Of a stretch of 64,000 bases of DNA, positions 3,895 to 24,226 are shown piece after piece. The translations under genes were made by a program, and so were the position numbers. Each line of letters starts with the position of its first letter. The stretch's first letter is position 1. The notes beneath the pieces were generated by a model, which saw nothing but the letters and a program-made list of their open reading frames with translations, was not told the origin of the DNA and ran no database searches. The DNA comes from Levilinea saccharolytica (GTDB taxonomy: Bacteria; Chloroflexota; Anaerolineae; Anaerolineales; Anaerolineaceae): contig NZ_LGCM01000060.1 in assembly GCF_001306035.1 (NCBI RefSeq), forward strand, positions 1 through 64,000. Reading direction: 5' to 3'.

Positions 3895-3927
3895 ACTGGC
3901 CGGGGCGGCGCCCATTGGAGGATTTTC

Positions 3928-3957
3928 AACCCGCCGCTGCTGCAAAAGCGGCGGGTT
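3928..3957 (+). terminator. Hairpin terminator after the CHAP/cadherin gene
   Basis: A perfect 10-bp inverted repeat, AACCCGCCGC (3928-3937) and GCGGCGGGTT (3948-3957), has a 10-base loop. It lies 34 bases after the stop codon. The following TGTGTTAG is only modestly T-rich, so termination may be incomplete. An extended -10 element starts right at its foot. Confidence 0.6.
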
Positions 3958-3958
3958 G

Positions 3959-3967
3959 TGTTAGAAT
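3959..3967 (+). promoter_or_regulatory. Possible extended -10 promoter for the tandem MFS genes
   Basis: TGT followed by TAGAAT (3962-3967) matches the extended -10 pattern TGnTATAAT with one mismatch. It lies 32 bases before the MFS start at 3999. No good -35 box is seen because the preceding bases are the terminator hairpin. Weak support. Confidence 0.35.
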
Positions 3968-3998
3968 ATGCTCTAATTCTCCCTGGAAGGCAGGCACT

Positions 3999-5219
3999 AT
4001 GCTCAACCAAATCAAAGCCGCCTGGCAAAATTTCCCCCGCCAGTACTGGCTGCTCGTCGGCGGATCTCTGCTGTCTGCCACCGGCGGCGCCATGATCTGG
4101 CCCTTTCTCACCATTTACCTGCGCCAGCGCTTAGATTTACCCATGACCACTGTGGCCAGCCTCTTGACCATTAACGCGGCCACCAGCCTGATTTCCTCCT
4201 TCATCGCCGGGATGGCTGCCGACCGCTTTGGGCGCAAGCACGTCATGAGCCTGTCCCTGCTGTGCGGCGCGCTGTATTACGGGCTGTTGGGCAGCGCATC
4301 CACCTTTTTGGAATTTGCCCTGCTGATGGGCTTTTGGGGCGCGGCTTCAGCCCTCTACCCTGTGGGCGCCAACGCCATGGTCGCCGATCTGGTGGCGGAT
4401 CAAGACCGGGTGGACGCTTACTCCTTCCTGCGCATGGTGCACAACGTGGGCGTGGCCGTCGGCCCCATCGCGGGTGGGATTCTCATCGCCGCCTCGTACA
4501 ACGTGGCCTTTGCCGCGGCTGGCGCTTTTTTTGGATTGTATGCCCTTATCAATATTTTTTTCATCCGTGAAACCCTCACCCGGGTAGAAAAATCCGCCTC
4601 TGCTCCCAAAGACTCACTGGGCGGGTACGGGCGCATCCTCCAGGACCGCATCTTCGTCTGGTTCGTGCTGGCCTTCACCTTCACCATGGTCACCGCCACC
4701 CTCATGTTCGTCATGCTGCCGGTGTACGCCAACGAAAACTTCAACGTCCCAGAAAGCCAGTACGGCTACATCGTGACTGTCAACGCCCTCATGTGCATTT
4801 TCGTGCAGTACTTTGTCACCCAGCTCATCAAAAAGCGCCCGCCGCTGCCGGTTTTGGCCGTCGGCGCCCTCTTTTACGCCCTGGGGGCGGGCAGCGTGGC
4901 TTTTGGCACGAACTTTTGGGCCTTTGTGGTCAGCATGGTCATCCTCACCATTGGCGAGCTGATCATGACCCCCACGGCCACCTCGCTCACCGCCCAACTG
5001 GCCCCCGAAGACATGCGCGGCCGCTACATGAGCGTCTATTCCCTCACCTGGCCGCTGGCCGCCGGCTTTGGGCCCATTTTTGCCGGCCTGCTCAACGACA
5101 ACATCGCCCCTGTGGCCATGTGGTACGGCGGTTTGGCCGTCGGCCTGCTGGGGGTGGGCGTTTTCCTGATCCTCTCCCGCCGCTTCAAGATCACCCTCAC
5201 CCACAATCCGCTGCCCTAG
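3999..5219 (+). CDS. MFS transporter (first of a tandem pair)
   Basis: A 406-residue, 12-segment major facilitator protein of the inner membrane. The start at 3999 is preceded by GGAAGG (3985-3990) at 8 bases; an in-frame ATG at 3915 lies before the terminator hairpin and is rejected. The MFS motif A between helices 2 and 3 is visible as GMAADRFGRK. Its opening (QYWLLVGGSLLSATGGAMIW) is close to that of the next gene (QFWLMVAGMLISTIGASMIW), so the two are paralogues from a local duplication. Only 13 bases separate them, so they are probably co-transcribed. Motifs fit drug/proton antiporters of the DHA1 type, but the substrate cannot be read from sequence. Confidence 0.85.
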   Translation: MLNQIKAAWQNFPRQYWLLVGGSLLSATGGAMIWPFLTIYLRQRLDLPMTTVASLLTINAATSLISSFIAGMAADRFGRKHVMSLSLLCGALYYGLLGSASTFLEFALLMGFWGAASALYPVGANAMVADLVADQDRVDAYSFLRMVHNVGVAVGPIAGGILIAASYNVAFAAAGAFFGLYALINIFFIRETLTRVEKSASAPKDSLGGYGRILQDRIFVWFVLAFTFTMVTATLMFVMLPVYANENFNVPESQYGYIVTVNALMCIFVQYFVTQLIKKRPPLPVLAVGALFYALGAGSVAFGTNFWAFVVSMVILTIGELIMTPTATSLTAQLAPEDMRGRYMSVYSLTWPLAAGFGPIFAGLLNDNIAPVAMWYGGLAVGLLGVGVFLILSRRFKITLTHNPLP

Positions 5220-5232
5220 GACGAGCGTCCCC

Positions 5233-6468
5233 ATGCAATCACTCCTGACAAGTTTTCAAAACAAGCGCTACCCCGGCCAATTCTGGCTGATGGTGGCCGG
5301 TATGCTCATCAGCACCATCGGCGCCAGCATGATTTGGCCCTTCCTGATGGTGTATGTCAGCGGGCAGCTCAACCTGCCCCTTATGGTCGTTTCCAGCCTG
5401 ATGACTATCAACTCCGCCGCGGGTCTGGTCAGCTCGCTGATTGTGGGGCCGATCATTGACCGCCTGGGCCGCAAATGGGCGATGGTCATCAGCCTCGGCC
5501 TGCTGGGGGGCATGTACTTGCTCTACACCCAGGCCCACACCTACGCCGCTTTTGCTGCCCTGATGGTCCTCTCCGGCGCCATCAACCCCCTCTACCGCGT
5601 AGGGGCCGACGCCATGGTGGCCGACCTGATCCCCGAAGACAAGCGTCTGGACGCCTACGCCATCATGCGCATGAGCAACAACCTGGGCGTGGCCGTTGGG
5701 CCAGCCCTGGGCGGCTTCATCGCCAGCTCGTCCTACACGGTGGCCTTCCTCAGCGCCGCCACCGGCATGGTCACCTACAGCCTGCTGCTGACCTTCTTTG
5801 CCCGCGAAACCCTGCCCGCCCGCCTGCCCGAAACAAACCAGGCAGCCCCCACGCGCGAGCGCTTCGGCGGCTACAACATTATTTTCAAAGACCGGCCCTT
5901 CATGGGCTTCATCTTCGCCCTCATCCTCGGCCAAATGTGCGCCACTATGGTGTGGGTGCTCATGGCCGTCTATCTCAAAGCCAATTTCGGCATCCTCGAA
6001 CGCGAGTTCGGCTGGATCGCCTCCACCAACGCCATTATGGTGGTGACCCTGCAAGTGTACGTCACCAACATCACCAAACGCTACCCCTCTCTGCCGGTGC
6101 TGGCCGTGGGGGTGCTGCTGTACGCCGTCTCCATGTTTATGATCAGCCTGAGCACCGGCTTTTGGGGGTTCTGGGTCAGCATGGTGGTGCTGACTTTTGG
6201 CGAGCTGACCCTGGTTCCCACCGCCAACGCATACACTGCCAGGCGCGCCCCCGCCCACATGCGCGGCCGTTACATGAGTATCTTCGGCCTCACCTGGGGC
6301 ATCTCGCACGGTGTGGGCGCGGTCTTAGGCGGGCTGCTCAACGACACCCTCGGCCCCATCTTCATTTGGATCGGCGCGGGAATCATTGCCCTGGTTGGTT
6401 TTGCCTTCCTGCTGTACCTGATACGTGTGGAACGCCGCGAAGCCCAAACAGCCGTCCCGCTCACTTAA
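5233..6468 (+). CDS. MFS transporter (second of a tandem pair)
   Basis: A 411-residue, 12-segment major facilitator transporter. Motif A reads GPIIDRLGRKW, and the second half carries a related MRGRYMSIFGLTW motif that is nearly the same as MRGRYMSVYSLTW in the upstream paralogue. It starts 13 bases after that gene's stop, consistent with a two-gene operon. The ribosome binding site is weak (AGGACGAG spanning the previous stop), suggesting translational coupling. Substrate unknown; a pair of diverged, co-expressed MFS proteins could have different substrates or work together. Confidence 0.85.
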   Translation: MQSLLTSFQNKRYPGQFWLMVAGMLISTIGASMIWPFLMVYVSGQLNLPLMVVSSLMTINSAAGLVSSLIVGPIIDRLGRKWAMVISLGLLGGMYLLYTQAHTYAAFAALMVLSGAINPLYRVGADAMVADLIPEDKRLDAYAIMRMSNNLGVAVGPALGGFIASSSYTVAFLSAATGMVTYSLLLTFFARETLPARLPETNQAAPTRERFGGYNIIFKDRPFMGFIFALILGQMCATMVWVLMAVYLKANFGILEREFGWIASTNAIMVVTLQVYVTNITKRYPSLPVLAVGVLLYAVSMFMISLSTGFWGFWVSMVVLTFGELTLVPTANAYTARRAPAHMRGRYMSIFGLTWGISHGVGAVLGGLLNDTLGPIFIWIGAGIIALVGFAFLLYLIRVERREAQTAVPLT

Positions 6469-6490
6469 TTTCCTTCACCCCGCTTAAAAA

Positions 6491-6532
6491 CCAGTCTCAC
6501 GAGGCTCATGGTCGTGGCCCTCGTAAGACTGG
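6491..6532. terminator. 14-bp hairpin between MFS and NB-ARC genes
   Basis: Arms 6491-6504 and 6519-6532 pair over 14 positions with a single mismatch and a 14-base loop. On the plus strand it follows the MFS stop by 22 bases but has no T run after it. On the minus strand it is followed by TTTTT (the AAAAA at 6486-6490), so it is a better terminator for leftward transcription. It may act in both directions. Confidence 0.5.
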
Positions 6533-6616
6533 GATTGAATTCCGCTCCCCTGGGCGCGGAAGGATATTGCGCATGGTGCGGATACACATTGCTTATACAT
6601 TGATGACTTACAACAA

Positions 6617-6645
6617 TTGCAGCCGCACTGCAAGTTCGCTATAAT
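6617..6645 (+). promoter_or_regulatory. sigma70-type promoter for the NB-ARC/TPR operon
   Basis: TTGCAG (6617-6622) and TATAAT (6640-6645) are spaced by 17 bases, close to consensus. A second -10-like TATAGT lies at 6655-6660. The NB-ARC start codon is at 6721, giving a leader of about 70 bases. The rest of the 6469-6720 gap holds only the hairpin at 6491-6532. Confidence 0.65.
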
Positions 6646-6720
6646 TGCATTCATTATAGTAATTTTCCTGCGGTAAACAGGCTGGTTTCAGACAATTTTC
6701 GGACAAAAAAGAGACAGGTC

Positions 6721-8205
6721 ATGTCCCAATCCCAGCTTTCCCCCGACGATCTGGAACGTGCTCTTCGCGCTCTCCGCCGTGCTGAACCGCTCAGCGGGGC
6801 ATTCCTCCATTTACAGCTTTTAAAAACTGCGGCCCCAGCTCGCAGCCCCGCCGTGGTACTTGAAGAGACCATTTTGCGCCTGACGTTAGAACACCTCCAG
6901 CAAGCCCGCGCCGCCGCGGGTGTTCCCACCCTTACCCCTACCAACCCCTCCCGCGAACAAAATCTGGATCAGTTAGCTGCCGATTTCAGCGCCTCCAGCG
7001 CGCAGTTGGAAGCCTGGAGCGCCGTTTACCACCGCTATCTTAGCCCGATGGACGTTTCGGCGCGCGACCTGGCCGCCGCGGCGCATGTGGCCCCGCGCCA
7101 GTTTCGCCGCCGCCTGGCCGCGGGTCTTGAACATCTGCTGGCAGCTTTGCAGCGCGCGGATGAAGATGTTCAAAGCGCCAACCGGCTTTCCGGCCTCCGC
7201 CGCCATATCCCACCGCCCGAATATCTGCATTTCGTCGGTCACAGCCCGCTGCGCGCGCGTCTGCTGGAACTGCTCCAAAAGCCTTGCGGCCCCGGTTTCA
7301 TCAGCCTGGAAGGTCTGGGCGGCATCGGTAAAACCGCCCTGGCGCGCACCGCCGCCTGGGATCTGGCGGCTCAGGCCGAATTATCCGGTGTCGCCTGGGT
7401 TTCTGCTCGCCCGGCCGCCCCCGATTCATCCGCGCCGCACCCCATCCAGCGCCTGGATGACATCGTCACGCGCATTTCCTATCAACTGGGCCAGGATCCC
7501 TTGGCAGGGCTGACCACCACCGCCCGTCTGGAAAATCTGCGCCCCCTGCTGCACGAGCACCCTTACCTGATCGTCATTGACAATCTGGAAACGCTGGACG
7601 ATGTGAAAGACGTTCTGCCCCATCTCTTTCCACTTTCGGGCCAAACCCGCTTCCTGCTCACCAGCCGCACCAACCTGTCCACCTATCCCTTTGTGCAGGT
7701 TGTGCCTGTTCCGGAACTGTCCATCGAAGAGGCTCACCAACTGGTGACCAGCGAACTGGTGCGCCGCGGCCACACCGCTGGGCTAAGCCGTGAAGTTATG
7801 GCCGCACTGTTCGCCCACACCGGCGGCCTGCCCCTGGCCCTCAAGCTGGCCGCCGCCCAACTCACCCTGCTGCCCTTCGACGCCATCCTCGCCGATCTGC
7901 AGCACGCCGCCAATCAGGACAGCGCCCAGCTCTACACCCATATCTACCGCCAATCCTGGGGCCTGCTGGAAGACCCCGCCCGCCAACTGCTGCTCTCCAT
8001 GCTGATGAGCTCCCCCGACGGCGAAACCCTCCCCTGGCTGCAGGCCATGAGCGGCCTGGCGCCGGATGAATTCACTCCCGCGCTGCGCAGCTTACAGCAT
8101 TTCTCGCTCATCGAGGTGGGCGGCGGACTGGGCGACCCCACCTACCGCCTGCACCGCCTGACCGCCACCTTTTTACAGACCAATATCCTCCAGCGCTGGG
8201 TATGA
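6721..8205 (+). CDS. NB-ARC (STAND/AP-ATPase) protein
   Basis: The protein has 494 residues. Residues 1-190 are an unrecognised, mostly helical region with a possible helix-turn-helix (SARDLAAAAHVAPRQFRRRL, about residues 109-128). An NB-ARC domain follows: P-loop GLGGIGKT (about 198-205), Walker B LIVIDNLETL (about 283-292), sensor LTSRTN, and GGLPLAL (about 368-374). A winged-helix region follows with an RLHRLTATF sequence where NLR proteins carry the MHD motif. The protein stops just after this module, and its ATGA stop overlaps the start of a TPR gene. In typical STAND proteins the sensor repeats are on the same chain. Inferred role: ATP-switched signalling or defence/regulatory hub needing the TPR partner. 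The output mechanism is unknown; no nuclease or TIR domain is seen. Confidence 0.82.
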   Translation: MSQSQLSPDDLERALRALRRAEPLSGAFLHLQLLKTAAPARSPAVVLEETILRLTLEHLQQARAAAGVPTLTPTNPSREQNLDQLAADFSASSAQLEAWSAVYHRYLSPMDVSARDLAAAAHVAPRQFRRRLAAGLEHLLAALQRADEDVQSANRLSGLRRHIPPPEYLHFVGHSPLRARLLELLQKPCGPGFISLEGLGGIGKTALARTAAWDLAAQAELSGVAWVSARPAAPDSSAPHPIQRLDDIVTRISYQLGQDPLAGLTTTARLENLRPLLHEHPYLIVIDNLETLDDVKDVLPHLFPLSGQTRFLLTSRTNLSTYPFVQVVPVPELSIEEAHQLVTSELVRRGHTAGLSREVMAALFAHTGGLPLALKLAAAQLTLLPFDAILADLQHAANQDSAQLYTHIYRQSWGLLEDPARQLLLSMLMSSPDGETLPWLQAMSGLAPDEFTPALRSLQHFSLIEVGGGLGDPTYRLHRLTATFLQTNILQRWV

Positions 8206-9779
8206 ACACACCCCCCTCACCGACCCCTCCCCCCGCCGCCGATTGGGCCAGCCGTTACCGCACCTTGCTGGAAAACCGGCTGCGGTGGGCGGTGGAAAGT
8301 CTGCCCCCTGCTGGTCAGCCGCCTGCGGATCTTCAGCCCCATCTCTCCAGCCTGCTCACCCTGCTGTCCGAAGCCGGCCAGCAGCTTGGCCCCCACCCCC
8401 TCAGTGTGCAGTTGACCCTGGGGCTGCACCCCTGGCCGCTGCGCTGGGGCATGTGGCCCGCCTGGGATGCGGCTTTGCGCACTGCCGCTCAGGCCGCTGC
8501 CGCCCTGGGCCTGGCGGATCAGCAAGCCTATTTGTTCACCGCCCTGGCCGAGCTGCAAATTGCCCGCGGCGTGCTGCCCCAGGCCGTGGAATTCGCATTT
8601 CAGGCCCTCAAAATCGCTCGATCCCAACACGCCCTGCCGCCCTTCGCCGCCGCAGCCAGCGCCCTGCTGTTGACCCTACGCACCCAGGGGGAAAATATTG
8701 ACGCCGTCCACCACCTGAATGAATTTCAAAGTGAGGTGGAACATTGGTCACCGCCGCCAGACCCCCAGGATCTCCTGGAAGCCCGCGCGCGTTTGAATCT
8801 GCACCGCGCCGCCTTGCTGCGCATTGAAAGCCGTCTAACCGAGGCCCTGCATGCCGCCCATGCCGCGCTCATCGCCCTTTCCTCCCGCCCCAAGCAAGAC
8901 CCGCTCTTCACCGAAGCGCTCCAGATGCGCGGTACCCTGTATTGGGCGCGCGGAGAGCACCACCTGGCTGCCCTGGATTTTCGGCGCGCTGCTGATATTT
9001 TGGATCAATTGGGGGATCCGTTCGAGGCGGTCAATGTGCGCGGCGATCTCGGCCTCATTCATTGGAGCATGGCCGAATACGACACCGCCGAAGCGCTCAT
9101 CCGCCAGAGCGTCATCGTCTGCGAACAAAGCGATGCGCAGTGGCGCCTGGTTCGTTCGGTGGGCAACCTGGTGGCCGTGCAGCTTTCCCGCGGCCGCCTG
9201 TTGGACGCACTGGAATACGACCGCCGCCATATCGAGACCGCCCAGCGCATTGGCGACGCTGGCGAACTGGCCCGCGCCGTTGGCAACCGCGGCAGCATCC
9301 TGCTGTATTTGGGGCGCTGCTCCGAGGCCCTCCCCGACTTGCTGAAGACTCTGGCGCAATTCCGCACAATGGGCCGTCAGGAGCTGGTGGCGTTGAGCTG
9401 TATTGAACTAGGATTGTGTTACGCCGGATTAAATAACACCACCTTGGGTCTGTACTACACTCAAAAAGCCCAAAGTATTTCTGGAACGCTGAAAGAACAG
9501 CTCGCATTGCAGATCCACTGGCGCCGCGGAATGGCCTTCCTGCATCCCCCGCATCAAGCCGTTCCCTGGCTGGAAGAAGCCCTGGCCGTGGCGCGGGAGA
9601 CCCGCCGCCCCTTTGATGAGGCCGCCTGTTTGCTGGACCTGGGGGGCAAGCAAAACACACCCGAACAAGCCTCGCCCTACTGGCTGGAAGCGGAAAAGAT
9701 CCTCACCCGCATTGGCGCTCAAAACTGGCTCAGCGGTCAAACCCCCATCCGTCCGCCCTTTCTCATGTTGGCCCTCTAA
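8202..9779 (+). CDS. TPR-repeat protein, partner of the NB-ARC ATPase
   Basis: The protein has 525 residues, almost entirely helical, with several tetratricopeptide-like units. Examples are ALQMRGTLYWARGEHHLAAL, VRGDLGLIHWSMAEYDTAEA and AVGNRGSILLYLGRCSEALP in the second half. The N-terminus is Pro-rich without signal peptide or membrane segment, so it is cytoplasmic. The ATG overlaps the NB-ARC stop (ATGA at 8202-8205), which couples translation. This is the layout expected for the sensor half of an NLR-like protein. Its 3' end faces the end of the minus-strand glycan locus with only nine bases between stop codons. Confidence 0.8.
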   Translation: MNTPPSPTPPPAADWASRYRTLLENRLRWAVESLPPAGQPPADLQPHLSSLLTLLSEAGQQLGPHPLSVQLTLGLHPWPLRWGMWPAWDAALRTAAQAAAALGLADQQAYLFTALAELQIARGVLPQAVEFAFQALKIARSQHALPPFAAAASALLLTLRTQGENIDAVHHLNEFQSEVEHWSPPPDPQDLLEARARLNLHRAALLRIESRLTEALHAAHAALIALSSRPKQDPLFTEALQMRGTLYWARGEHHLAALDFRRAADILDQLGDPFEAVNVRGDLGLIHWSMAEYDTAEALIRQSVIVCEQSDAQWRLVRSVGNLVAVQLSRGRLLDALEYDRRHIETAQRIGDAGELARAVGNRGSILLYLGRCSEALPDLLKTLAQFRTMGRQELVALSCIELGLCYAGLNNTTLGLYYTQKAQSISGTLKEQLALQIHWRRGMAFLHPPHQAVPWLEEALAVARETRRPFDEAACLLDLGGKQNTPEQASPYWLEAEKILTRIGAQNWLSGQTPIRPPFLMLAL

Positions 9780-9788
9780 CGCACCTGT

Positions 9789-10559
9789 TTACTCTGTGCG
9801 CAGCCGCTGCCGTCTGCGCCAGCGGATCAGCGGGCCCACCAGCTTGCGCACCCAGTATTTGGCGTAAATCACCGAAAACACCGAGCCGCCCTCGCGCCGG
9901 TGCACGCGCAGCATCTCTGGCCAGCAGCGGTCGTCCGCCGCGATGGTTTTGGCCTCGCCGTGCAGCCGGAAATTGGCCCACACCTTGCCCGGCAGATACG
10001 CCACCGCTGCCAGCCGCGCCAGCCGCACCCACAAATCGTAATCCATCGCGAAGTAAAAGCTGGGGTCCAGCGGCCCCACCTGGCGCCATAGATCCGCCCG
10101 GAAGAAAGCCGCCTGCTGGGGCACATGCACATACCCCTGCCGCAGCCGCCGGTAATCGGTCTGCGCCGCCGGAAAACGGCCAATCGCCGCCCCCTGTGCG
10201 TTGATAAAGTTGGCATCCCCATACACCAGCCCCACCTCGGGGTGGGCCTGCAGATATTCCACGGCCTGCCGCACGGCCCCCGGCTCATAGGTGTCGTCCG
10301 AATTCAGCCAGGCCAAAATCTCCCCCTGCGCCCGCGCGAAGCCTTTGTTAATCGCGTCCGTCTGCCCGCGGTCCTTCTCCGAAACCCAGCCCGCCAGCCG
10401 CGGCGCGTAGCGCTGGATGATCTCCCGGCTGCCGTCGGTGGAGCCGCCGTCCATCACCCAATATTCCAGATCCGGGTAATCCTGCTCCAGCACCGAACGG
10501 AGGGTCGCCTCTAAAAACGGCGCCTGCTGATAGGAGGGGGTCACAATACTGACGCGCAT
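9789..10559 (-). CDS. Family 2 glycosyltransferase
   Basis: A 256-residue GT-A fold inverting glycosyltransferase. Nucleotide-sugar binding motifs are visible: VTPSYQQ at residues 6-12, DGGSTDGS near 37-44, EKDRGQTDAINKG, and the metal-binding NSDD near 85-88. It has no membrane segment and should act at the cytoplasmic face. It is the last gene of the long minus-strand glycan locus, and its start overlaps the stop of the preceding GT-C gene by one base. It resembles the GT2 at 14411-15370 in layout and motifs. Donor and acceptor are unknown. Confidence 0.85.
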   Translation of the reverse strand: MRVSIVTPSYQQAPFLEATLRSVLEQDYPDLEYWVMDGGSTDGSREIIQRYAPRLAGWVSEKDRGQTDAINKGFARAQGEILAWLNSDDTYEPGAVRQAVEYLQAHPEVGLVYGDANFINAQGAAIGRFPAAQTDYRRLRQGYVHVPQQAAFFRADLWRQVGPLDPSFYFAMDYDLWVRLARLAAVAYLPGKVWANFRLHGEAKTIAADDRCWPEMLRVHRREGGSVFSVIYAKYWVRKLVGPLIRWRRRQRLRTE

Positions 10560-12094
10560 CAGGGAGCCTGCTTCAGATCGTAGATGAGCACATCACCGCT
10601 CGATTCGATCAGCCGGTAATTTTCATCCAGAATCTTCTTTAGTTCCGGTTGGTGATCCAATTCGCCCAGCAGGGTCACCACAAACAGATCTTTACCCGCG
10701 GTGACTTCGTCAAACAAAGCACGCATGTCAAATTCCTGCCCGGCCAGTTCGCGGTAGCTGAAATCGCCGGAGGTCATCCAGTTGGTCGTGTCCACCCAGC
10801 CCCAATAGCTCAGGCGAAAGCCGTAGTCCTGGGTCAGCCCCACCACCGCCCGGTCGCGCCCCAGCCGTTCGCCTAACTTTTCCCAAAAAACCGCCTCCTG
10901 GCGGTAATCCTGCCGCTTCAGGCTCACGCGCGCATCCCAGGCCTTAATCGTCAGACCGTACAGCAGCACCCCCACCACCGCCAGGGATACTAGCACCCGC
11001 GGCCCGCGCAGCGCCCGAAACAGTGCCGCCGCCCCGGCCGCCAGCCCCAGCGCCGCCAGCGGGATCAACGGCAGCTGGTAATAGTCATGGGTAGAAATGT
11101 GGTGCGGCAGGGTCAACCCGTACAGAAAATAGCCCACCCAGGCCCCCAGCAGCATGGCCCGTGCGCGCGAATCTTTGATGGTAAACGTTCCCAACAGCGC
11201 CAGTAAAAACCACTCAAACCCCACCGTGCTGGCAATTTGTCCGTTCCAGCGCAGGTAAAAGACCGGATCCAACCACATCTGCGGGAAAAAGCGCAGGCTG
11301 AACTGGCTTTGCAGCTCGCCAGAAATATACACACCATAAATGTGAAACAGGGCGTAGGGGAGCACGGTCAGCACCGCCGCCAGCCACACCTGCCCATCCC
11401 GTAGGGCGCGCCGCAGCCCCCAGCCTGCCAGCACCAACCCCACCAGCCCGCCGCCCACGAAGAACACCGCTGTGCTCTTGATGAAAATAGCCAGGCCGCA
11501 CAGAATCCCCGCCAAAGCAGCCCGCCCCCAACTGGGACGCATCTGCCAGCGCAACGCCGCCCACAGCGCCCAGATGATGGCCGCCGTCAGCAGCGGGTCC
11601 GGCTGGAAAGCCCGGCTGGCCAGCACCGCATAGGGCAGCACCAGGAAATAAGCCGCCCCCACCAGCCCCCCGTCTGGCCCGGTCAGGGTCTTGGCCAGCA
11701 GAAAAATGCCCGCCCCGCCCAGCATCCAGAAGAAGATGGAAAACAGGCGCGGCAGCCGCAGATCCACCTGCCCCGCGGCCAGATAGGCCTGCGCCGTCAG
11801 CCATTCCATCACCGGCGGTTCAATCAGGCCCTCTTTTTTCCACTGCTGATAAGACATTTCCCGCTGCCAATCGGGCACGTCCGGCAGGGATTGGTAGGCC
11901 ATCCCGCGCGCCATCAGCATGGAATGCAACTGCCGGGTGGGGTGAAAATCCAACGGGGCGTCCCCCAGATCGTACAGCCGCACCGCCAGTCCCAGCCCGA
12001 AGATCAGCGCCAGACCCACGAACAGCATCCACCGTCGCGGGGCCAGCCGCGGGGTCTCCGTCTGCGAAGAAACGTCCATAACCTGCTCAGCCAT
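10559..12094 (-). CDS. GT39/PMT-like membrane glycosyltransferase (tandem copy 2)
   Basis: A 511-residue polytopic membrane protein. The start at 12094 follows the upstream stop by 11 bases and has an AGAGGGAG ribosome binding site. Just after the first helix comes RLYDLGDAPLDFHPTRQL, an acidic first outer loop as in GT-C enzymes of the ArnT/PMT type, which move sugars from polyprenyl phosphate carriers. The adjacent upstream gene has PPLDFHPTRQL in the same place and a matching C-terminal segment (DHQPELKKIL versus DAQPELKQIL), so the two are tandem paralogues. The substrate is unknown. Confidence 0.75.
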   Translation of the reverse strand: MAEQVMDVSSQTETPRLAPRRWMLFVGLALIFGLGLAVRLYDLGDAPLDFHPTRQLHSMLMARGMAYQSLPDVPDWQREMSYQQWKKEGLIEPPVMEWLTAQAYLAAGQVDLRLPRLFSIFFWMLGGAGIFLLAKTLTGPDGGLVGAAYFLVLPYAVLASRAFQPDPLLTAAIIWALWAALRWQMRPSWGRAALAGILCGLAIFIKSTAVFFVGGGLVGLVLAGWGLRRALRDGQVWLAAVLTVLPYALFHIYGVYISGELQSQFSLRFFPQMWLDPVFYLRWNGQIASTVGFEWFLLALLGTFTIKDSRARAMLLGAWVGYFLYGLTLPHHISTHDYYQLPLIPLAALGLAAGAAALFRALRGPRVLVSLAVVGVLLYGLTIKAWDARVSLKRQDYRQEAVFWEKLGERLGRDRAVVGLTQDYGFRLSYWGWVDTTNWMTSGDFSYRELAGQEFDMRALFDEVTAGKDLFVVTLLGELDHQPELKKILDENYRLIESSGDVLIYDLKQAP

Positions 12095-12105
12095 GCTCCC
12101 TCTGC

Positions 12106-13617
12106 TCACTTCGCCTCCGGCAGCGGGTTTTGCAGATCGTACAGCACAAAACCGTTGCCTTCCGCAAATATGGGGTAATGTTCGGTCAAAATTTGTTTTA
12201 ATTCCGGCTGCGCATCCAGCTCGCTGAAAGCGGTCACCAGGAAATACTGGCGGCCCTCCGTCAGGCTGGCAAACGCCTCCAGCGGATCGCCGGCCTCGCT
12301 GCCCGCCATCGAGAACAGCTTGAGATCCGCGCCAGCCGGCCACGACGCCGCGATGCTGCGCCAACCGTAATAGCGCAGACGCATGCCGTAATCGGCGGTC
12401 AGCGCCACCACCGAGCTGCCCGCCGGGATGGCCTCGCCCACCCGCCGCCAGCTTTCCGGCTCGTAGGGGTAATTTTTGGCCACCAGGGTCGAGCGCGCCA
12501 CGAACAAAGCATAGCCCGCCGCCGCCAACACCACCCCCAAAGCCGCCAGCCGCCAGACCCAGGCTTCCTGTTTCAGCCGTTCCACCACCGGCGCAGCCAA
12601 GAAAGGCAGACTCAGCCCAATCAGCGCCACCAGCGGTAAATGATAATATTCGTGGGTGGTGTACTGGTAAGGGAACAGCAGCCCGTACAGCGCGTAACCC
12701 GCCCACCACCCGATGAGCAGCGGTTTATGCTCGCGCCCCGCCAACAGCGTCCCCAGCAGCGCCGCCGGTAGGTAGGCCAGGCCGGTCAGCCCCTTCACCA
12801 TCGCCAGCCAATCCGCGTAGAAATTGGTGGTCAGCACCAGCCCCGAAAGGGCTACGGTCCAAAACGACAGGAAGTCGCCGCTGCGCTGTGCGTTGAAACC
12901 CAGGTACAGAATCAGCACCGGCGCCGCGCTCAGGGCGGCCAACGCCCAGGTCTGCGGACGTTTCAGCATCTTGCCCAACCCGCCCGCCAGCATCACCGCC
13001 GCCAGCACCGGCAGCAGGAAAAAGCCCGCCACCACCTTCACCAACAGCGCCATTCCCGTCAGCCCGCCGGTGATCAGCGCCCAGCGCCATTGATCAGGCG
13101 CGGCCTGCCAGCGCCGCAGCCCCCAGGTGGCCAGCAGCATCCACATCACCATCCACGGCTCCGGCTGGAAGGAACGGCTGGCAATTACCCCAAAGGGCAG
13201 GCACAGATAAAACAACAGTCCCAGCCAGCTGGCCCAAAACGGCACCGCCCCGCGCAAAATTTGCAGCAGAGCCGCCCCACCGATCAGCCAGAAGAGGGCG
13301 TTCATCACCCGCGCCGCCCACAGCGCTTCTTTTCCCAACAGGGCATACACCCCACCCACCAACGTCTCCAAAATAGGCGGTTCGTAGGTCTCCAATTGCG
13401 CCAAAGCCTGTGCAGCCTCGCGCTGCTGCGGGTCTGCGTCCGGCGAAAGCTGATAATACACACTGCGCGCCAGGATGGCCGAGCGCAGCTGCCGCGTGGG
13501 GTGAAAATCCAGCGGCGGGTCGTACAGATCCACCAGGCGCACGCCGAAGCCCGCCAGGCACACCAATACCACCAGCACCGTCTGCCAACCCCTGGCCCAC
13601 AGCCGTGAAAGACTCAC
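12106..13617 (-). CDS. GT39/PMT-like membrane glycosyltransferase (tandem copy 1)
   Basis: A 503-residue polytopic membrane protein. The GTG start at 13617 is chosen because AGGAGG sits six bases upstream and it overlaps the FkbM gene stop. The first outer loop carries LYDPPLDFHPTRQL, shared with the downstream paralogue. Roughly ten hydrophobic helices are followed by a soluble C-terminal region ending LYDLQNPLPEAK. GT-C enzymes of this type act on the outer face of the membrane with lipid-linked sugar donors. Role in modifying the glycan made by this locus is inferred from position. Confidence 0.75.
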   Translation of the reverse strand: MSLSRLWARGWQTVLVVLVCLAGFGVRLVDLYDPPLDFHPTRQLRSAILARSVYYQLSPDADPQQREAAQALAQLETYEPPILETLVGGVYALLGKEALWAARVMNALFWLIGGAALLQILRGAVPFWASWLGLLFYLCLPFGVIASRSFQPEPWMVMWMLLATWGLRRWQAAPDQWRWALITGGLTGMALLVKVVAGFFLLPVLAAVMLAGGLGKMLKRPQTWALAALSAAPVLILYLGFNAQRSGDFLSFWTVALSGLVLTTNFYADWLAMVKGLTGLAYLPAALLGTLLAGREHKPLLIGWWAGYALYGLLFPYQYTTHEYYHLPLVALIGLSLPFLAAPVVERLKQEAWVWRLAALGVVLAAAGYALFVARSTLVAKNYPYEPESWRRVGEAIPAGSSVVALTADYGMRLRYYGWRSIAASWPAGADLKLFSMAGSEAGDPLEAFASLTEGRQYFLVTAFSELDAQPELKQILTEHYPIFAEGNGFVLYDLQNPLPEAK

Positions 13618-13618
13618 C

Positions 13619-14410
13619 CTAAGCCTCCTCGCCGCGCACAAACAAGGCGTCCGCCTGCAAAACCGAACCGTCCACCGGCGAAAGCAGGCTGTCAAAACCG
13701 CCCGCGTAGCGGAAGCCCTGGGTCTTGAGCAGCGTGTTCAACCGCGAAAAGCTCACCTGCCCCTGATACAGCGGCTGAAAAGACACTTCGCTCAGGATCA
13801 CATCCACCTGGCGCAGGGTCTCCGCCGCGCCGCTGAGGGCCTGTTCCTCATAGCCCTGCACATCCAGCTTCAGCAGCACCGGCCCGCGCAATTCCATGCG
13901 CGGCAGGAAGTCATCCAACCGTCCCACGGCTACGCGCACTTCCTGCACCCCCGCGGTGTGGGGGAAAGTGCGCTTGTGCAGTTCGTCCATGGGCAGCGCC
14001 GACGAAGAGGGTGAAAAGCTGCTGCGGTAAAAGCTGATCTCGCCGCTTTCGGCCCCCAGGGCCGTATGAAAGGCGGTGAAGCGCGGCAGATGCGCCAGGT
14101 TGCGCGTCAATTGCTCATAATGATCCGGCAGCGGCTCAAAGGCGTAAATCTGCGCCTCCGGCAGCAGGGCGTGAACGGCCAGCGAAAACGCCCCAATGTA
14201 CCCGCCCACATCCAGCACCGTTTGAAAGCCCTGGTGTTCAAACCAGCGCCGGTGGCGGCGCAGGTGGGCCAATTCGCGCACCAGCGGGCGGCGCGTCAGC
14301 GTCCACTTCGCCAGGCGGCCAAAATCCTGCGGGAAGGCCAGAGGGGTCACCAGATATTCCAGCGCCTTTTCAACTTTTTCCGGAAGCGAATCCAGCATAC
14401 GTTCTCCCAT
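13619..14410 (-). CDS. FkbM-family methyltransferase
   Basis: A 263-residue SAM-dependent methyltransferase. It shows the glycine-rich motif VLDVGGYIGAFS, the acidic residue in YAFEPLPDHYEQL, and the FkbM hallmark LKLDVQGYEEQAL. FkbM enzymes O-methylate sugars or polyketides. In glycan loci they typically methylate sugar hydroxyls. The start lies immediately after the upstream GT2 stop codon, and its stop overlaps the GTG of the downstream GT-C gene, so it is tightly coupled within the operon. Confidence 0.85.
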   Translation of the reverse strand: MGERMLDSLPEKVEKALEYLVTPLAFPQDFGRLAKWTLTRRPLVRELAHLRRHRRWFEHQGFQTVLDVGGYIGAFSLAVHALLPEAQIYAFEPLPDHYEQLTRNLAHLPRFTAFHTALGAESGEISFYRSSFSPSSSALPMDELHKRTFPHTAGVQEVRVAVGRLDDFLPRMELRGPVLLKLDVQGYEEQALSGAAETLRQVDVILSEVSFQPLYQGQVSFSRLNTLLKTQGFRYAGGFDSLLSPVDGSVLQADALFVRGEEA

Positions 14411-15370
14411 TCAGTCCAAATTGGGCGGCAGCCGCCGCGTTGTGCGCGCGCTGCGCTGGCGGTCGAACCACGTGCGCAGCCGCGCCCCGCCCATCCCCGC
14501 TGCGCAAGTGTAGGCGATCCGTTTCCAATCGGCCATCGCCGTGGGGATGTGCAGCCGCGCACAGGCCGCATACGCCCGCAGCGCGCCCCCATAGTCGCCC
14601 CCCTCCGACAGGTAACGACCATTCAGCCGCTGCGCCCCCGCCAGAATGCGCTTGCGATCTTTGCGGAAATGCGCCCGCAGCCCATCCTGCCACTGCATCC
14701 AGGCGGCGATGTCCAGCGCCTCGCGCCCAAAAGCCGCCGCCTGGGCCACGTTCTTAGCCTCGGCGTGAAAACGAGCCGCCGCCCACAGCTCCGGCACATA
14801 CTGTGCCCCGGCGGCAGCCGCCATGCGGATCCATAATTGGTGATCCAGCAGGTAATGGTAGCGCACGTCCAGATACCCCACCCGCCGCAGCGTCTCACGC
14901 CGCATAAACACCGCTGGTTGGCCGATGATCTGGAAACGCAGCAGCCCCTCCAGGCCCCAGTTACCGTAGCTCAGGCGGTTGGTAGGCTGACCGGCCCCGT
15001 CCACCGCCAGCACATCCCCATACACCAGACCCACTCGCGGCTGGTGCAGAAGGGTTTCCACCGCGGCCTTAAAGGCCCCCGGCAGATAATAATCATCCGA
15101 ATTGATCCATGCTACAAAATCACCCGTGGCCCGCCGCAAACCCTTGTTAATCGCCTCGGCCTGCCCGCGGTCCGGCTCCGAAACCCACCACGCCAGACGT
15201 TTGGCGTACTTGCGGATGATCTCTGGGCTTTCATCGCTGGACCCGCCGTCCACCACAAAATATTCCAGGTTAGGGTAGCCCTGATCCAGAACAGAACGGA
15301 TGGTCTGTTCCAGATAAGCTCCCTGGTTAAAGGAGGGGGTCACAATCGTCAGGCGCGGCCAGGCAGGCAT
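14411..15370 (-). CDS. Family 2 glycosyltransferase
   Basis: A 319-residue GT-A glycosyltransferase. Motifs are IVTPSFNQGAYLEQTIRSVL at the N-terminus, VVDGGSSDES, EPDRGQAEAINKGLRRATGD and the metal-binding INSDDYY. It is about 60 residues longer than the GT2 at 9789-10559, the extra part being a basic C-terminal tail that may bind membrane lipid. The stop abuts the FkbM gene start. Donor and acceptor are unknown. Confidence 0.85.
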   Translation of the reverse strand: MPAWPRLTIVTPSFNQGAYLEQTIRSVLDQGYPNLEYFVVDGGSSDESPEIIRKYAKRLAWWVSEPDRGQAEAINKGLRRATGDFVAWINSDDYYLPGAFKAAVETLLHQPRVGLVYGDVLAVDGAGQPTNRLSYGNWGLEGLLRFQIIGQPAVFMRRETLRRVGYLDVRYHYLLDHQLWIRMAAAAGAQYVPELWAAARFHAEAKNVAQAAAFGREALDIAAWMQWQDGLRAHFRKDRKRILAGAQRLNGRYLSEGGDYGGALRAYAACARLHIPTAMADWKRIAYTCAAGMGGARLRTWFDRQRSARTTRRLPPNLD

Positions 15371-15376
15371 ATCGGT

Positions 15377-16195
15377 TTATCCGTGGAACAGGCTGTTGTA
15401 ATCCACCCGCGGAAAGACGCGCAGCTTGCCGCCCACCGTGGCGTCAATGATCTCCCGCCCGGCGGCCTGATAGGCCTGTTTCGCCATACCGTAGGCCAGT
15501 TCGGAGGTCTCCAAATCCGGCAGCTGCCAGCGGAAGCCCTTGCCAAAATAGCTGGGGGAGAAATGGTTGGGGTCGTCCCCTTCGGATACCACCGTGGTGT
15601 TGGGCTTACCCTGGGTCACAAAATTGTGATCCACGCCAATCAGCACCACCTGCTGAAAGCCCAGGAAAAAGGCCAGCTGCATGGCCACATAGGTGACGGT
15701 CGCGCCCTCCCACAGCCGCCGCGCAGCGTTCTTTTGAAAGCCCGCGCCGGTGTAGGTGGTGTACAGGAAATACAGGTCGTCTTCGGGCCGCAGCCAGCGC
15801 CGCGCCCGCCAGGAAACAAACCGCGGCAGCTTCAACGCCTGAATGTCTGTGGCACACTGTTCCACCACCAGATCGTTGACCGACAGGTAATAGCTGGTGG
15901 AAAAGCCCAGTTCCGGGTACATCAGGTAAATACGGTTCATGCCGATGCTGAACTCGCCTTTGAGCTTGCTCAAATCCGTCTCGCGCAGACTGGGGCCGTT
16001 GCCGATGATAAAGCAGCGTTCGCCCTTGCGGCTGTCCTTCAGAGCCGCCATGCGCCGCATGGTATCGCGCCGCCAGGGGTGAAAAGTGGCTTCCGGCCAG
16101 CCTTTGGAGCGCTGCAGCGCGTCCAGGCTCTGCCCGCCCGCCCGGATGAGGGTCGGCGGCAGGATTTTTTTAAGGGTTTCTTTAATCGTGCTCAT
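15377..16195 (-). CDS. DUF115 / MptE-like protein
   Basis: A 272-residue soluble protein. The motif CFIIGNGPSL (about residues 60-69) is the signature of the DUF115/MptE-like fold, which includes the Maf motility accessory proteins that transfer nonulosonic acids to flagellins and archaeal pterin pyrophosphokinases. A second conserved stretch is QQVVLIGVDHNF, typical of the same family. The ATG overlaps the preceding SDR stop (ATGA). In a locus with two nonulosonic acid synthases, a role in transferring or processing such sugars is possible but unproven. Confidence 0.65.
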   Translation of the reverse strand: MSTIKETLKKILPPTLIRAGGQSLDALQRSKGWPEATFHPWRRDTMRRMAALKDSRKGERCFIIGNGPSLRETDLSKLKGEFSIGMNRIYLMYPELGFSTSYYLSVNDLVVEQCATDIQALKLPRFVSWRARRWLRPEDDLYFLYTTYTGAGFQKNAARRLWEGATVTYVAMQLAFFLGFQQVVLIGVDHNFVTQGKPNTTVVSEGDDPNHFSPSYFGKGFRWQLPDLETSELAYGMAKQAYQAAGREIIDATVGGKLRVFPRVDYNSLFHG

Positions 16196-16956
16196 TCTGT
16201 GCTCAGCCGCGCCGTGGCGCCCCCATCCACAATTAACGCCTGACCGGTCATAAACGACGACTGCCGCCCGTCCGCCAGGAAATAAATAGCGCTGGCAATC
16301 TCCTGCGGCTGGCCGACGCGGCCGTTCACCGTCTTGCGCGCCAAATTTTCCAAACGGTCGCTCATCGATTCCCCGCCCACATGCCCGCGGTTCAGCCCTG
16401 CCCGCAGCATGGGGGTGTCCACTGCGCCGGGGAGAATGGCGTTCACGCGGATGTTCTGCGGCGCAAATTCAATCGCCATGGCGCGTGTCAGCGCCAACAG
16501 GCCGCCTTTGCTGGCCGCATATGCGGCGATATTGGCCGAGGTGGCCACCGCGTGCACCGAAGACACGTTCACAATCGCCCCGCCGCCCGCCGCCACCAGC
16601 AGCGGATAGGCCAGTTTGGCCCCCAAAAACACCGAACGCAGGTTGGAAGCCATCACCAGATCCCATTCTTCCACGCTGGTTTCCACCAGCGGTCGGGTGA
16701 TCTGCATGGCGGCGTTATTCACCACCACATCCAGCACCCCCGCGAAGGCCGATGCCTGCTGGTAAATGGTCTCAATATCCTGAGGGTTGGAAATATCCGC
16801 GCGAATAAACAAACCGTTTTCCGGAAAACCCGCGCCAAAATCCGCGCGGTCCACCCCCACCACGCGCCAGCCGGCCTGAGCAAAATAGGCCACGGTCGCC
16901 CGCCCCACACCGCCAGCCGCCCCTGTGATCAGCATCACTCGTTGTCGTTCTTCCAT
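16192..16956 (-). CDS. Short-chain dehydrogenase/reductase
   Basis: A 254-residue classical SDR. The start at 16956 has AAGGGAG upstream; earlier in-frame starts would overlap the upstream gene. Features are the NAD(P)-binding LITGAAGGVGRA, NNAAM, catalytic Ser in VNVSSVHAV, YAASKGG with Tyr and Lys, and the C-terminal FMTGQALIVDGG. It probably oxidises or reduces a sugar or sugar-acid intermediate. It sits between a GT-C gene and the DUF115 gene, with an ATGA overlap to the latter. Substrate cannot be told. Confidence 0.8.
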   Translation of the reverse strand: MEERQRVMLITGAAGGVGRATVAYFAQAGWRVVGVDRADFGAGFPENGLFIRADISNPQDIETIYQQASAFAGVLDVVVNNAAMQITRPLVETSVEEWDLVMASNLRSVFLGAKLAYPLLVAAGGGAIVNVSSVHAVATSANIAAYAASKGGLLALTRAMAIEFAPQNIRVNAILPGAVDTPMLRAGLNRGHVGGESMSDRLENLARKTVNGRVGQPQEIASAIYFLADGRQSSFMTGQALIVDGGATARLSTE

Positions 16957-16975
16957 TCGTATCGCTCCCTTTCGG

Positions 16976-18997
16976 TTAATTGGCAGCTTCCACGTTTCCG
17001 CACAAATTGTGAACCAGGTAACTCTCCGCCGCCTGCGCACCCAACTGGGCGCGCTGCGCGGTGCAGTAGGTGTTCAAAAAGGCCGCGTCCGTGCGCAGCA
17101 GCCCGCCCAAATGGTCGGCCTGCTCCTGGCGGCCCAGCGTTGCGTAGGCCTCGTAAAACGGCATCCATTCGCTGAGGTCTGCCGGGGCCAATCCGCGTTC
17201 CAAAGCCTCATCCCCCAGGGCTGCGGCGGCCTGCCAATCCTGCCGCTGACGCGCCAGGCTGGCCTGCTGGTAATAATAACACCATCCATGTTCCGGCTCG
17301 CGTCCAAACACCGCCGACGGAGGAATATGCGCCGCCGCGTCCACCGCGATGCGGCTCGCATCCGAAAGCGGCGCCACCAGCCGCACCAACGCTTCCTCAC
17401 GGCTGGAGACCTCGCCGCGCGCGCCCTCGATCACGTGCAGACAGGCCCCGCCGGGCGGCAGGCTCACCACCAGGCTGCTGCGCGTTTCCACCGTGTATTC
17501 CACCCGCCGAAACCATTCGCCAAAGGTCTCGCGCCGCAGGGCCTGCAGCAGGGTCTGGTCATCCAGGGTCATGCCCACCACGCGCAGATCCGTCCCGCCG
17601 GGGTTGTAGATCAAGTTGGCCGGCGACCAGACTTCGTAGCCCTCGCGCAGGCGGTAGCCCGCCGGAAGCACCGGAACAATCACCGTGCCGTCTTTCAGGT
17701 CGGGCGCGCGCCAGCTCAGCTGCCACCACAATTGGCGCTGATATTCCCAGGCGCGGCTGTACACCGCCGCGTTGGCGTTCTGAGTCACCAGCCCCGCGGC
17801 GATCAGCACCGCCCCGGCCAAAATGCGCCCCTTTGGCCGGAACCAGGCACAGGCCGCCGCCGCCAAAAACAGGCCCACCATCGGCCCGGCTTGCAGCGAA
17901 TAATGGTCGTATGCGTCCGCGAAATACACATCCCGTCCAGCCAGCAGCACCGGCAGCAGTGCCGCCAGCGTCCCCGCCGCCCCCATCCACAAGGCCCCCC
18001 GCGTCCAGGCGGGTTCTTCGTCGCGCGAATCCAGCCCGCGCACGCGCAGCGCCACAGCATAACCGAAGAGCGCCAGCCCGCCCAAAAGCCCCACCCCCAG
18101 AGCTTGCAGCACCACACCGGTCTCTGCCCGCTGGGTCAGGTTGTACAGTGGCACACCCCAGGCCAGAAACAGGCTTTCCAGCATGTCCTTGAACGATTCC
18201 ACCACCAGGCGCAGCCCCATCCCCAGCGGGTCGGCCAGATATTGCCCCTTCAGGCCGCCCAGGTCGGTGGCCGCGCGCGCACTGGTGAAGAAGAACACGC
18301 GCCAGATCAAGAAAACCAGCGCGCCGCCCAGGTAGGGCAGCGCCGGGCGCAGCGCACGCTGCGCTCGCTGAATGGGTTTTTGGGCTGCGCCGCCCCAGAA
18401 GAGAGCCGCCAGCACCAACAGGCGCACCCCTTCCAGGCCGATCATGTATTCAAACATGGCGTAGCACAGCAAAGCCGCCCCCACCGCCGCCAGCGTCATC
18501 CCTACCTGCACCCATTTGCGCTGGGCGCGCACCGCCGTCACCATCATCGCCAAAGAAAGCAGGCCCAAATCCAGGGCCAGAATATTCAGTTGATACGTCA
18601 CCGCCTTGGGCTGTGAGAGAAATCCCGGATACACCACAAACAAGCCCGCCGCCAGGGTGGTGGCCAGGCGTTCCTCCGGCCACAACTGGCGCAGCAGCCA
18701 CAAGGCCGCCAGCCCGCCCAAAAAGCGCAGCAGGGCCGCGTACACGTGCCAGGCCAGCGGCGAATTCCCCAACAAGGCAAAGGTGGCCGCAAAGGGCAGA
18801 CCCATAAACGGCCGGTCCACCAGATAAAAATCCACAATCTGCCCCAGGCCGCGCTGGGTTCCGCCCCAAATCACATACCAGTCATCCGTGTAAAAGCCCA
18901 ACGCACCCGCCCGGCTGAGGTAGGCCAAAGCAGAAAGCGCCGCCAGGAATCCGGCGGCTAACCAAGTTTCTGTGGGAATGCGTTTGGCTTGCATCAC
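16976..18997 (-). CDS. Large GT-C-like membrane protein
   Basis: A 673-residue polytopic protein with about ten to twelve hydrophobic helices followed by a soluble C-terminal part of roughly 270 residues. The first outer loop carries GFYTDDWYVIWGG, an acidic pair placed like the catalytic Asp of GT-C glycosyltransferases. The start is GTG at 18997 or the adjacent ATG at 18994, right after the upstream stop; no clear ribosome binding site, so coupling is likely. The C-terminal region has helical TPR-like stretches (about 590-650). Function is unknown beyond probable glycan work at the outer face. Confidence 0.6.
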   Translation of the reverse strand: MMQAKRIPTETWLAAGFLAALSALAYLSRAGALGFYTDDWYVIWGGTQRGLGQIVDFYLVDRPFMGLPFAATFALLGNSPLAWHVYAALLRFLGGLAALWLLRQLWPEERLATTLAAGLFVVYPGFLSQPKAVTYQLNILALDLGLLSLAMMVTAVRAQRKWVQVGMTLAAVGAALLCYAMFEYMIGLEGVRLLVLAALFWGGAAQKPIQRAQRALRPALPYLGGALVFLIWRVFFFTSARAATDLGGLKGQYLADPLGMGLRLVVESFKDMLESLFLAWGVPLYNLTQRAETGVVLQALGVGLLGGLALFGYAVALRVRGLDSRDEEPAWTRGALWMGAAGTLAALLPVLLAGRDVYFADAYDHYSLQAGPMVGLFLAAAACAWFRPKGRILAGAVLIAAGLVTQNANAAVYSRAWEYQRQLWWQLSWRAPDLKDGTVIVPVLPAGYRLREGYEVWSPANLIYNPGGTDLRVVGMTLDDQTLLQALRRETFGEWFRRVEYTVETRSSLVVSLPPGGACLHVIEGARGEVSSREEALVRLVAPLSDASRIAVDAAAHIPPSAVFGREPEHGWCYYYQQASLARQRQDWQAAAALGDEALERGLAPADLSEWMPFYEAYATLGRQEQADHLGGLLRTDAAFLNTYCTAQRAQLGAQAAESYLVHNLCGNVEAAN

Positions 18998-18999
18998 GG

Positions 19000-19968: not shown

Positions 19969-20008
19969 GTGTGCTTCCTCGCCTGGAAAAAGTATGGTTG
20001 GCCTCGCG

Positions 20009-20023
20009 GCGCCCTCAGGGCGC
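20009..20023 (-). other. Intercistronic hairpin
   Basis: GCGCCC and GGGCGC flank a three-base loop in the 69-base gap between the cytidylyltransferase gene and the hydroxyacid dehydrogenase gene. There is no T run, so it is more likely an RNA-stability or processing element than a full terminator. Confidence 0.35.
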
Positions 20024-20037
20024 GCCAGGCTGTGAAA

Positions 20038-20730: not shown

Positions 20731-20751
20731 TTTCCCTCCGCAAAAAATTGG

Positions 20752-23330: not shown

Positions 23331-23343
23331 AACGCCTCCTGCC

Positions 23344-24213: not shown

Positions 24214-24226
24214 TGTTAACTCCTTA

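What the first reader, a model, noticed from the sequence alone, without database searches (positions are those of the whole stretch)
6721..9779. Split NLR-like (STAND) system: NB-ARC ATPase and TPR sensor on separate, coupled genes
STAND proteins normally hold effector, NB-ARC and repeat sensor in one chain. Here the first protein ends just after the winged-helix/MHD-like segment, and a TPR-only protein begins in an ATGA overlap, with its own strong promoter before both. The N-terminal 190 residues of the ATPase are unrecognised and could be a new effector or DNA-binding module. This is a candidate for an undescribed two-component switch in defence, signalling or regulation.
Basis: partly seen in the sequence, partly recalled or inferred. 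Interest (0 to 1): 0.65.

Follow-up and report, generated by a model that had tools for sequence, protein, structure and literature searches.

The report
Split two-gene STAND switch, probable regulator
Two overlapping genes in an Anaerolineae (Chloroflexota) genome encode the two halves of a protein switch of the Apaf-1/MalT kind, a DNA-binding ATPase half and a repeat-sensor half; relatives show that the split form recurs in many Anaerolineae and that it is most probably a signal-controlled gene regulator rather than a new toxin or defence effector.

Summary
Window 6721-8205 encodes a 494-aa NB-ARC ATPase that stops at the end of its winged-helix domain. Window 8202-9779, starting in an ATGA overlap, encodes a 525-aa TPR-only protein. 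The split is not an accident of this genome: the orthologous pair is adjacent in about 15 other genomes, and a wider family of NB-ARC ORFs of about 450-550 aa, each followed by a TPR ORF of about 400 aa, is common in Anaerolineae. Single-chain homologues exist, and split and fused forms interchange at least five times on the NB-ARC tree (four without one doubtful fusion). The 'unrecognised' N-terminus is a helix-turn-helix module: it is homologous to N-termini that score as Sigma70_r4, and other members carry an XRE-type HTH there. In the close family the first upstream gene is usually divergent and often encodes a secreted protein, typical of a local regulator; the window itself lacks this. 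Best reading: a two-subunit STAND transcription regulator whose arm and TPR sensor act in trans on an HTH-NB-ARC subunit, like MalT, AfsR or PH0952 but split. Interaction, ligand and targets are inferred, not shown. New variant of a known kind. A defence role has no positive support here.

The parts
6721..8205 (+). HTH-NB-ARC-winged-helix ATPase subunit (494 aa), ends at the end of the winged-helix domain
   Evidence: Pfam NB-ARC E 9e-13; AF2 pLDDT 86, pTM 0.75; VIA Z 25.3 to Apaf-1, 21.4 to MalT (8bob_C), 20.3 to PH0952; start conserved about 197 aa before Walker A in the close family
6721..7200 (+). N-terminal helical module (residues 1-160) with helix-turn-helix at about residues 94-150 (7000-7170), basic second helix RQFRRRL
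   Evidence: Profile-profile match of close-family to wider-family N-termini, 95%, E 3.8e-8; wider family hits Sigma70_r4 in 8 of 30, best 6.2e-7; helices 94-107, 114-120, 125-160 in the model
7312..7335 (+). Walker A GLGGIGKT (residues 198-205)
   Evidence: G198, G200, G201, G203, K204 invariant in 30 sequences
7567..7581 (+). Walker B LIVID (residues 283-287)
   Evidence: D287 nearly invariant
7660..7668 (+). Sensor-1 TSR (residues 314-316)
   Evidence: T314 and R316 invariant
8143..8163 (+). MHD-like motif YRLHRLT at the end of the winged helix (residues 475-481)
   Evidence: Y475, H478, L480, T481 invariant
8202..8205 (+). ATGA stop/start overlap coupling the two genes
   Evidence: short overlaps (1-19 nt) at most junctions of the family
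8202..9779 (+). TPR sensor subunit (525 aa): N-terminal helical arm-like part, then TPRs
   Evidence: TPR_12 E 8e-11; orthologues about 30% identical beside NB-ARC genes; in fused homologue L049 the homologous segment follows the winged helix directly
6639..6659 (+). Perfect 7-bp inverted repeat CTATAAT-N7-ATTATAG over the TATAAT, candidate promoter/operator
   Evidence: Only match in the window, expected 0.02; conserved in L003; no other exact copy in the genome. Function untested
6484..6539 (+). Conserved hairpin between the MFS gene and the pair (imperfect 21-nt arms, 14-nt loop)
   Evidence: no Rfam match; role unknown

Best explanation
The pair is a two-subunit STAND switch that most probably regulates transcription. 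The first protein is the DNA-binding (HTH) output plus the nucleotide switch (NBD, helical domain, winged helix). The second is the arm plus TPR sensor that in ordinary STANDs is on the same chain. At rest the TPR subunit would dock on the ADP-bound closed NB-ARC subunit, as the arm and sensor do in MalT and PH0952. A ligand (peptide, protein or small molecule, unknown) bound by the TPR subunit would release it, allow ADP-ATP exchange and oligomerisation, and so give cooperative HTH binding at target promoters. Shown here: the domain anatomy, the conserved split and coupling, fused homologues, and HTH homology. Inferred: physical interaction, sign of regulation, ligand and target genes.
For: NB-ARC fold ending at the winged helix, best matched by closed ADP-type structures. 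Conserved nucleotide motifs. Adjacency in about 15 close and about 14 wider loci, mostly with short overlaps. Fused NB-ARC-TPR homologues, e.g. L049: NB-ARC E 8e-125 and TPR E 2e-86 in one 919-aa chain, whose predicted structure has PH0952, a STAND with a TPR sensor, as best PDB match over 737 columns. Split and fused forms change at least 5 times on the tree. HTH. TPR homologue fused to BTAD in L091. Divergent first upstream gene in 26 of 33 against 37% background, P 1e-6; secreted product in 9 of 15 close-family loci against 15% background, P 6e-5. Precedents: MalT (PMC4381067), PH0952/MalT (PMC6468293), AfsR (PMC10936776).
Against: No interface was predicted or measured. In the window itself the upstream genes are co-directional MFS transporters and the downstream gene is convergent, so no adjacent divergent target exists here. 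The HTH assignment for this protein is indirect: no HTH Pfam match on its own, and no fold search of the N-terminus alone. Distant relatives carry PNP_UDP_1 (L095) or DUF4062 (L048) in the N-terminal slot, so the chassis is not restricted to regulation. Neighbour statistics rest on a simple ORF caller and on loci that are not fully independent. L062, the only fusion in the close family, may be a frameshift artefact.
Confidence: 0.62

Rival explanations
1. A defence (NLR-like) system: the TPR protein senses a phage product and the ATPase oligomerises to trigger a defensive response, with the HTH region acting as adaptor or inducing a defence programme.
For: STAND fold shared with NLRs; patchy distribution: no match at the thresholds used in the 10 sampled same-family genomes but 46-47% identity in another class of the phylum; PNP_UDP_1, a domain listed among conflict-system effectors (PMC8195603), in the N-terminal slot of distant L095.
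Against: No defence model matches convincingly; neighbours are transporters, glycan genes, secreted proteins, LLM oxidoreductase-like genes; N-terminal slot is HTH in the close and XRE members; no plasmid copies.
Confidence: 0.15
2. Two co-expressed but independent proteins: the HTH-NB-ARC protein is a complete short regulator (like medium SARPs, which have no TPR) and the TPR protein acts elsewhere.
For: NB-ARC-only members without a TPR neighbour exist (L043, L046); medium SARPs lack TPR (PMC10972967).
Against: Strong adjacency and overlap, fused homologues, repeated split/fused change on the tree, correlated distances (Mantel r 0.95 in the close family, although adjacent genes share history anyway).
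Confidence: 0.12
3. One protein made by programmed frameshifting or stop readthrough across the ATGA junction.
For: The TPR frame is open upstream of the junction in the window.
Against: The open stretch upstream is only about 10-16 nt in several relatives, the overlap varies, some pairs are separated by 3-83 nt or more, and no slippery motif is evident by eye.
Confidence: 0.04
4. A broken single gene (pseudogene or sequencing error).
For: Single-chain homologues exist.
Against: Same split in L003 at 92% identity and in dozens of loci, intact frames.
Confidence: 0.01

Closest known systems
PH0952 of Pyrococcus horikoshii (PDB 6MFV), STAND with TPR sensor (PMC6468293)
   Same: NBD-HD-WHD followed by arm and TPR; best PDB match of the fused homologue L049; Z 20.3 to the ATPase subunit
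   Different: Single chain; here arm and TPR are on a second gene and an HTH module is at the N-terminus
MalT of E. coli, STAND transcription activator (PMC4381067)
   Same: ATPase switch controlling DNA binding, arm plus superhelical-repeat sensor; Z 21.4 to 8bob_C, MalT domain III Z 23.7 to L049 TPR
   Different: MalT is one chain with a C-terminal DNA-binding domain; here the HTH is N-terminal and of another type, and the sensor is separate
AfsR and large SARPs of Streptomyces (PMC10936776, PMC10972967)
   Same: N-terminal DNA-binding part, NB-ARC, TPR order; NCBIfam AfsR model hits the TPR protein (E 4e-9)
   Different: SARP has a winged helix plus BTAD and is one chain; no BTAD here; hits far below the AfsR cut-off
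Apaf-1 and plant NLRs (e.g. NRC2)
   Same: NB-ARC fold, closed-like arrangement, MHD-like motif
   Different: No CARD, CC or TIR; no LRR or WD40; HTH in the effector slot

Membership tests
STAND NTPases, NB-ARC/AP-ATPase clade | Walker A, Walker B, sensor-1 Arg, GLPL, winged helix with MHD-like His | tested here: met
   Pfam NB-ARC 9e-13; invariant columns incl. K204, R316, P371, H478; Z 25.3 to Apaf-1
STAND NTPases, NB-ARC/AP-ATPase clade | Sensor repeats C-terminal on the same chain | tested here: not met
   TPRs are on a separate overlapping gene; fused homologues exist
STAND NTPases, NB-ARC/AP-ATPase clade | Inducer-triggered ADP/ATP exchange and multimerisation | not testable with these tools
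   Needs biochemistry
MalT/LAL regulators | C-terminal LuxR-type HTH on the same chain | tested here: not met
   HTH module is N-terminal; only TPR families in the second protein
AfsR/SARP regulators | N-terminal winged-helix DNA-binding domain plus BTAD | tested here: not met
   No BTAD or Trans_reg_C in the first protein; AfsR model hit only on TPRs and far below cut-off
HTH transcription regulators | Recognisable helix-turn-helix domain | tested here: met
   Via relatives: profile-profile E 3.8e-8, Sigma70_r4 above the curated cut-off in L071; not by direct Pfam hit on this protein
HTH transcription regulators | Sequence-specific DNA binding | not testable with these tools
   Candidate operator 6639-6659 only
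Bacterial NLR-type defence systems | Match to known defence models or an enzymatic/membrane effector domain | tested here: not met
   PADLOC best 5e-4 to Cas3e on the ATPase and a generic TPR model on the TPR protein, not credible; no effector domain in Pfam

The most novel reading that the evidence does not exclude
A clade-wide two-component STAND architecture in which the sensor works in trans as a separable, possibly exchangeable inhibitory subunit. Sensor and switch could then have their own stoichiometry, and one TPR sensor could serve several HTH-NB-ARC outputs (one genome holds an extra TPR copy near its pair, L064).
Probability: 0.3. Interest if true: 0.65.

Novelty: new variant of a known kind. 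Interest (0 to 1): 0.45.

Why it matters
How the arm and sensor hold a STAND ATPase shut has been hard to dissect because both sit on one chain. Here evolution has cut the chain at the winged-helix/arm boundary and kept both halves, so the inhibitory interaction could be titrated in trans with two purified proteins. It would also explain a large, apparently undescribed set of Anaerolineae NB-ARC genes as regulators rather than immune receptors. My full-text searches found no description, but they are not exhaustive.

Tried and rejected
A new effector domain at the N-terminus: rejected, it is an HTH module. A broken gene: rejected by conservation of the split. Programmed frameshifting: unlikely from variable junctions and, by eye, no slippery motif. 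L062 as proof of fusion: set aside, because its frame pattern fits two compensating indels in an ordinary pair; L049, L096, L097, L098 and L100 are used instead. Rfam search of the intergenic region: no match. Search of plasmids: no match. Search for other copies of the palindrome: one 3-mismatch site only. The single genome-contig scan returned only one near-identical MAG. Literature searches for split STANDs or NB-ARC in Anaerolineae/Chloroflexota found nothing on point. Mantel congruence is weak evidence because adjacent genes share a history.

Full report
Observation. The two ORFs, their order and the ATGA overlap are as described. The first (494 aa) carries NB-ARC and the second (525 aa) only TPRs. 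They occur once in the genome, which appears to be an Anaerolineae MAG; a 92%-identical locus with the same neighbours is in a record titled Levilinea sp. (L003). The claimed promoter is a perfect TATAAT at 6640-6645 that lies inside a perfect inverted repeat (6639-6659, expected 0.02 in the window), but no -35 element passes the scan.

The split is real and conserved. In a sample of 396 genomes of the class, 122 have a match to the ATPase at E <= 1e-10, and most listed matches lie in open frames of about 450-550 aa, too short to include a sensor. Fetched neighbourhoods show a close family with the orthologous TPR gene directly downstream in about 15 loci, and a wider family with a TPR ORF of about 400 aa downstream, usually overlapping by 1-19 nt. 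TPR orthologues were found in 17 of 396 genomes, the window's own included, nearly all beside or fused to the NB-ARC gene. The exceptions are an extra copy in L064 and L091, where the TPR region is fused to a BTAD activator domain instead. L043 and L046 are NB-ARC genes without a TPR neighbour. Two pairs in another class of the phylum (46-47% identity) have 3 nt between the genes.

Fused homologues. L049, L096, L097, L098 and L100 carry both parts in one chain: L049 NB-ARC E 8e-125, TPR E 2e-86. On an NB-ARC tree split and fused states need at least 5 changes on supported branches, and the fused L049/L096 sit inside a clade of split XRE-type members. L062 also appears fused but has a second frame break that would restore the usual frame, so it may be an artefact; without it the count would be one lower. 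The predicted fused protein (pLDDT 77) has PH0952, a STAND with a TPR sensor, as best PDB match over 737 columns, and its TPR part resembles MalT domain III (Z 23.7).

Anatomy of the ATPase. The AF2 model (pLDDT 86, pTM 0.75) aligns to Apaf-1, resting NRC2, MalT and PH0952 with Z 20-25 through its last residue, so the gene ends at the winged-helix/arm boundary. Walker A, Walker B, sensor-1 Arg and an MHD-like His are conserved.

The N-terminus. Scanned alone it matches nothing. Profile comparison links it to N-termini of the wider family (95%, E 3.8e-8); in the 30-member family alignment 8 members hit Sigma70_r4 (best 6.2e-7; L071 above the curated cut-off). In L035, L042, L043, L066 and fused L049 the slot holds an XRE-type HTH (HTH_31 down to 5e-10; HTH_3 2e-9 in L049; weak in L066). 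Replacement of one HTH by another argues that the slot is DNA-binding output. Distant L095 has PNP_UDP_1 and L048 DUF4062 there, so the chassis can carry other outputs.

Context. The first upstream gene is divergent in 26 of 33 family loci against 37% background (binomial P 1e-6). In the close family it is divergent and secreted in 9 of 15 against 15% secreted background (P 6e-5), including peptidase, trypsin, clostripain and Golvesin/fn3/cohesin proteins. Caveats: simple ORF calling, a hydrophobicity rule for secretion, and non-independent loci. The window has two co-directional MFS genes upstream and a convergent glycosyltransferase downstream, so its own target is not evident.

Mechanism. 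By analogy with MalT and PH0952 (PMC4381067, PMC6468293), where arm and sensor hold the NOD closed and the ligand releases it, I propose that the TPR subunit does this in trans and that activation lets the HTH-NB-ARC subunit multimerise on DNA. Interaction, ligand, sign and targets are inferred.

Known or new. By fold it is a STAND; it is not a member of MalT/LAL (HTH at the other end) or SARP (no BTAD). Full-text searches found no description of a split STAND with TPR in trans in this group. Novelty: new variant of a known kind.

Noticed in passing
window 6484-6539: Conserved hairpin (imperfect 21-nt arms, 14-nt loop) after the MFS gene, unique in the genome, no Rfam match.
   Followed up: partly
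window 9789-24468 (-): Convergent glycan-type cluster: GT2 glycosyltransferases, PMT_2 protein, FkbM methyltransferase, MptE-like, NeuB synthase.
   Followed up: partly
window 3915-6468 (+): Two tandem, similar MFS transporters directly upstream of the pair.
   Followed up: no
L095:7721-9766: NB-ARC protein with a PNP_UDP_1 phosphorylase domain in the N-terminal slot, followed by several TPR ORFs: possible effector version of the same chassis.
   Followed up: no
L091:7921-9936: BTAD activator domain fused to a homologue of the TPR partner, without NB-ARC.
   Followed up: partly
L111:8685-9551 and L112:6755-7402: Divergent LLM-oxidoreductase-like gene conserved beside the pair in two genomes of another class; in L111 a 1242-aa protein with a TIR-like N-terminus lies nearby (both named by eye only).
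   Followed up: no
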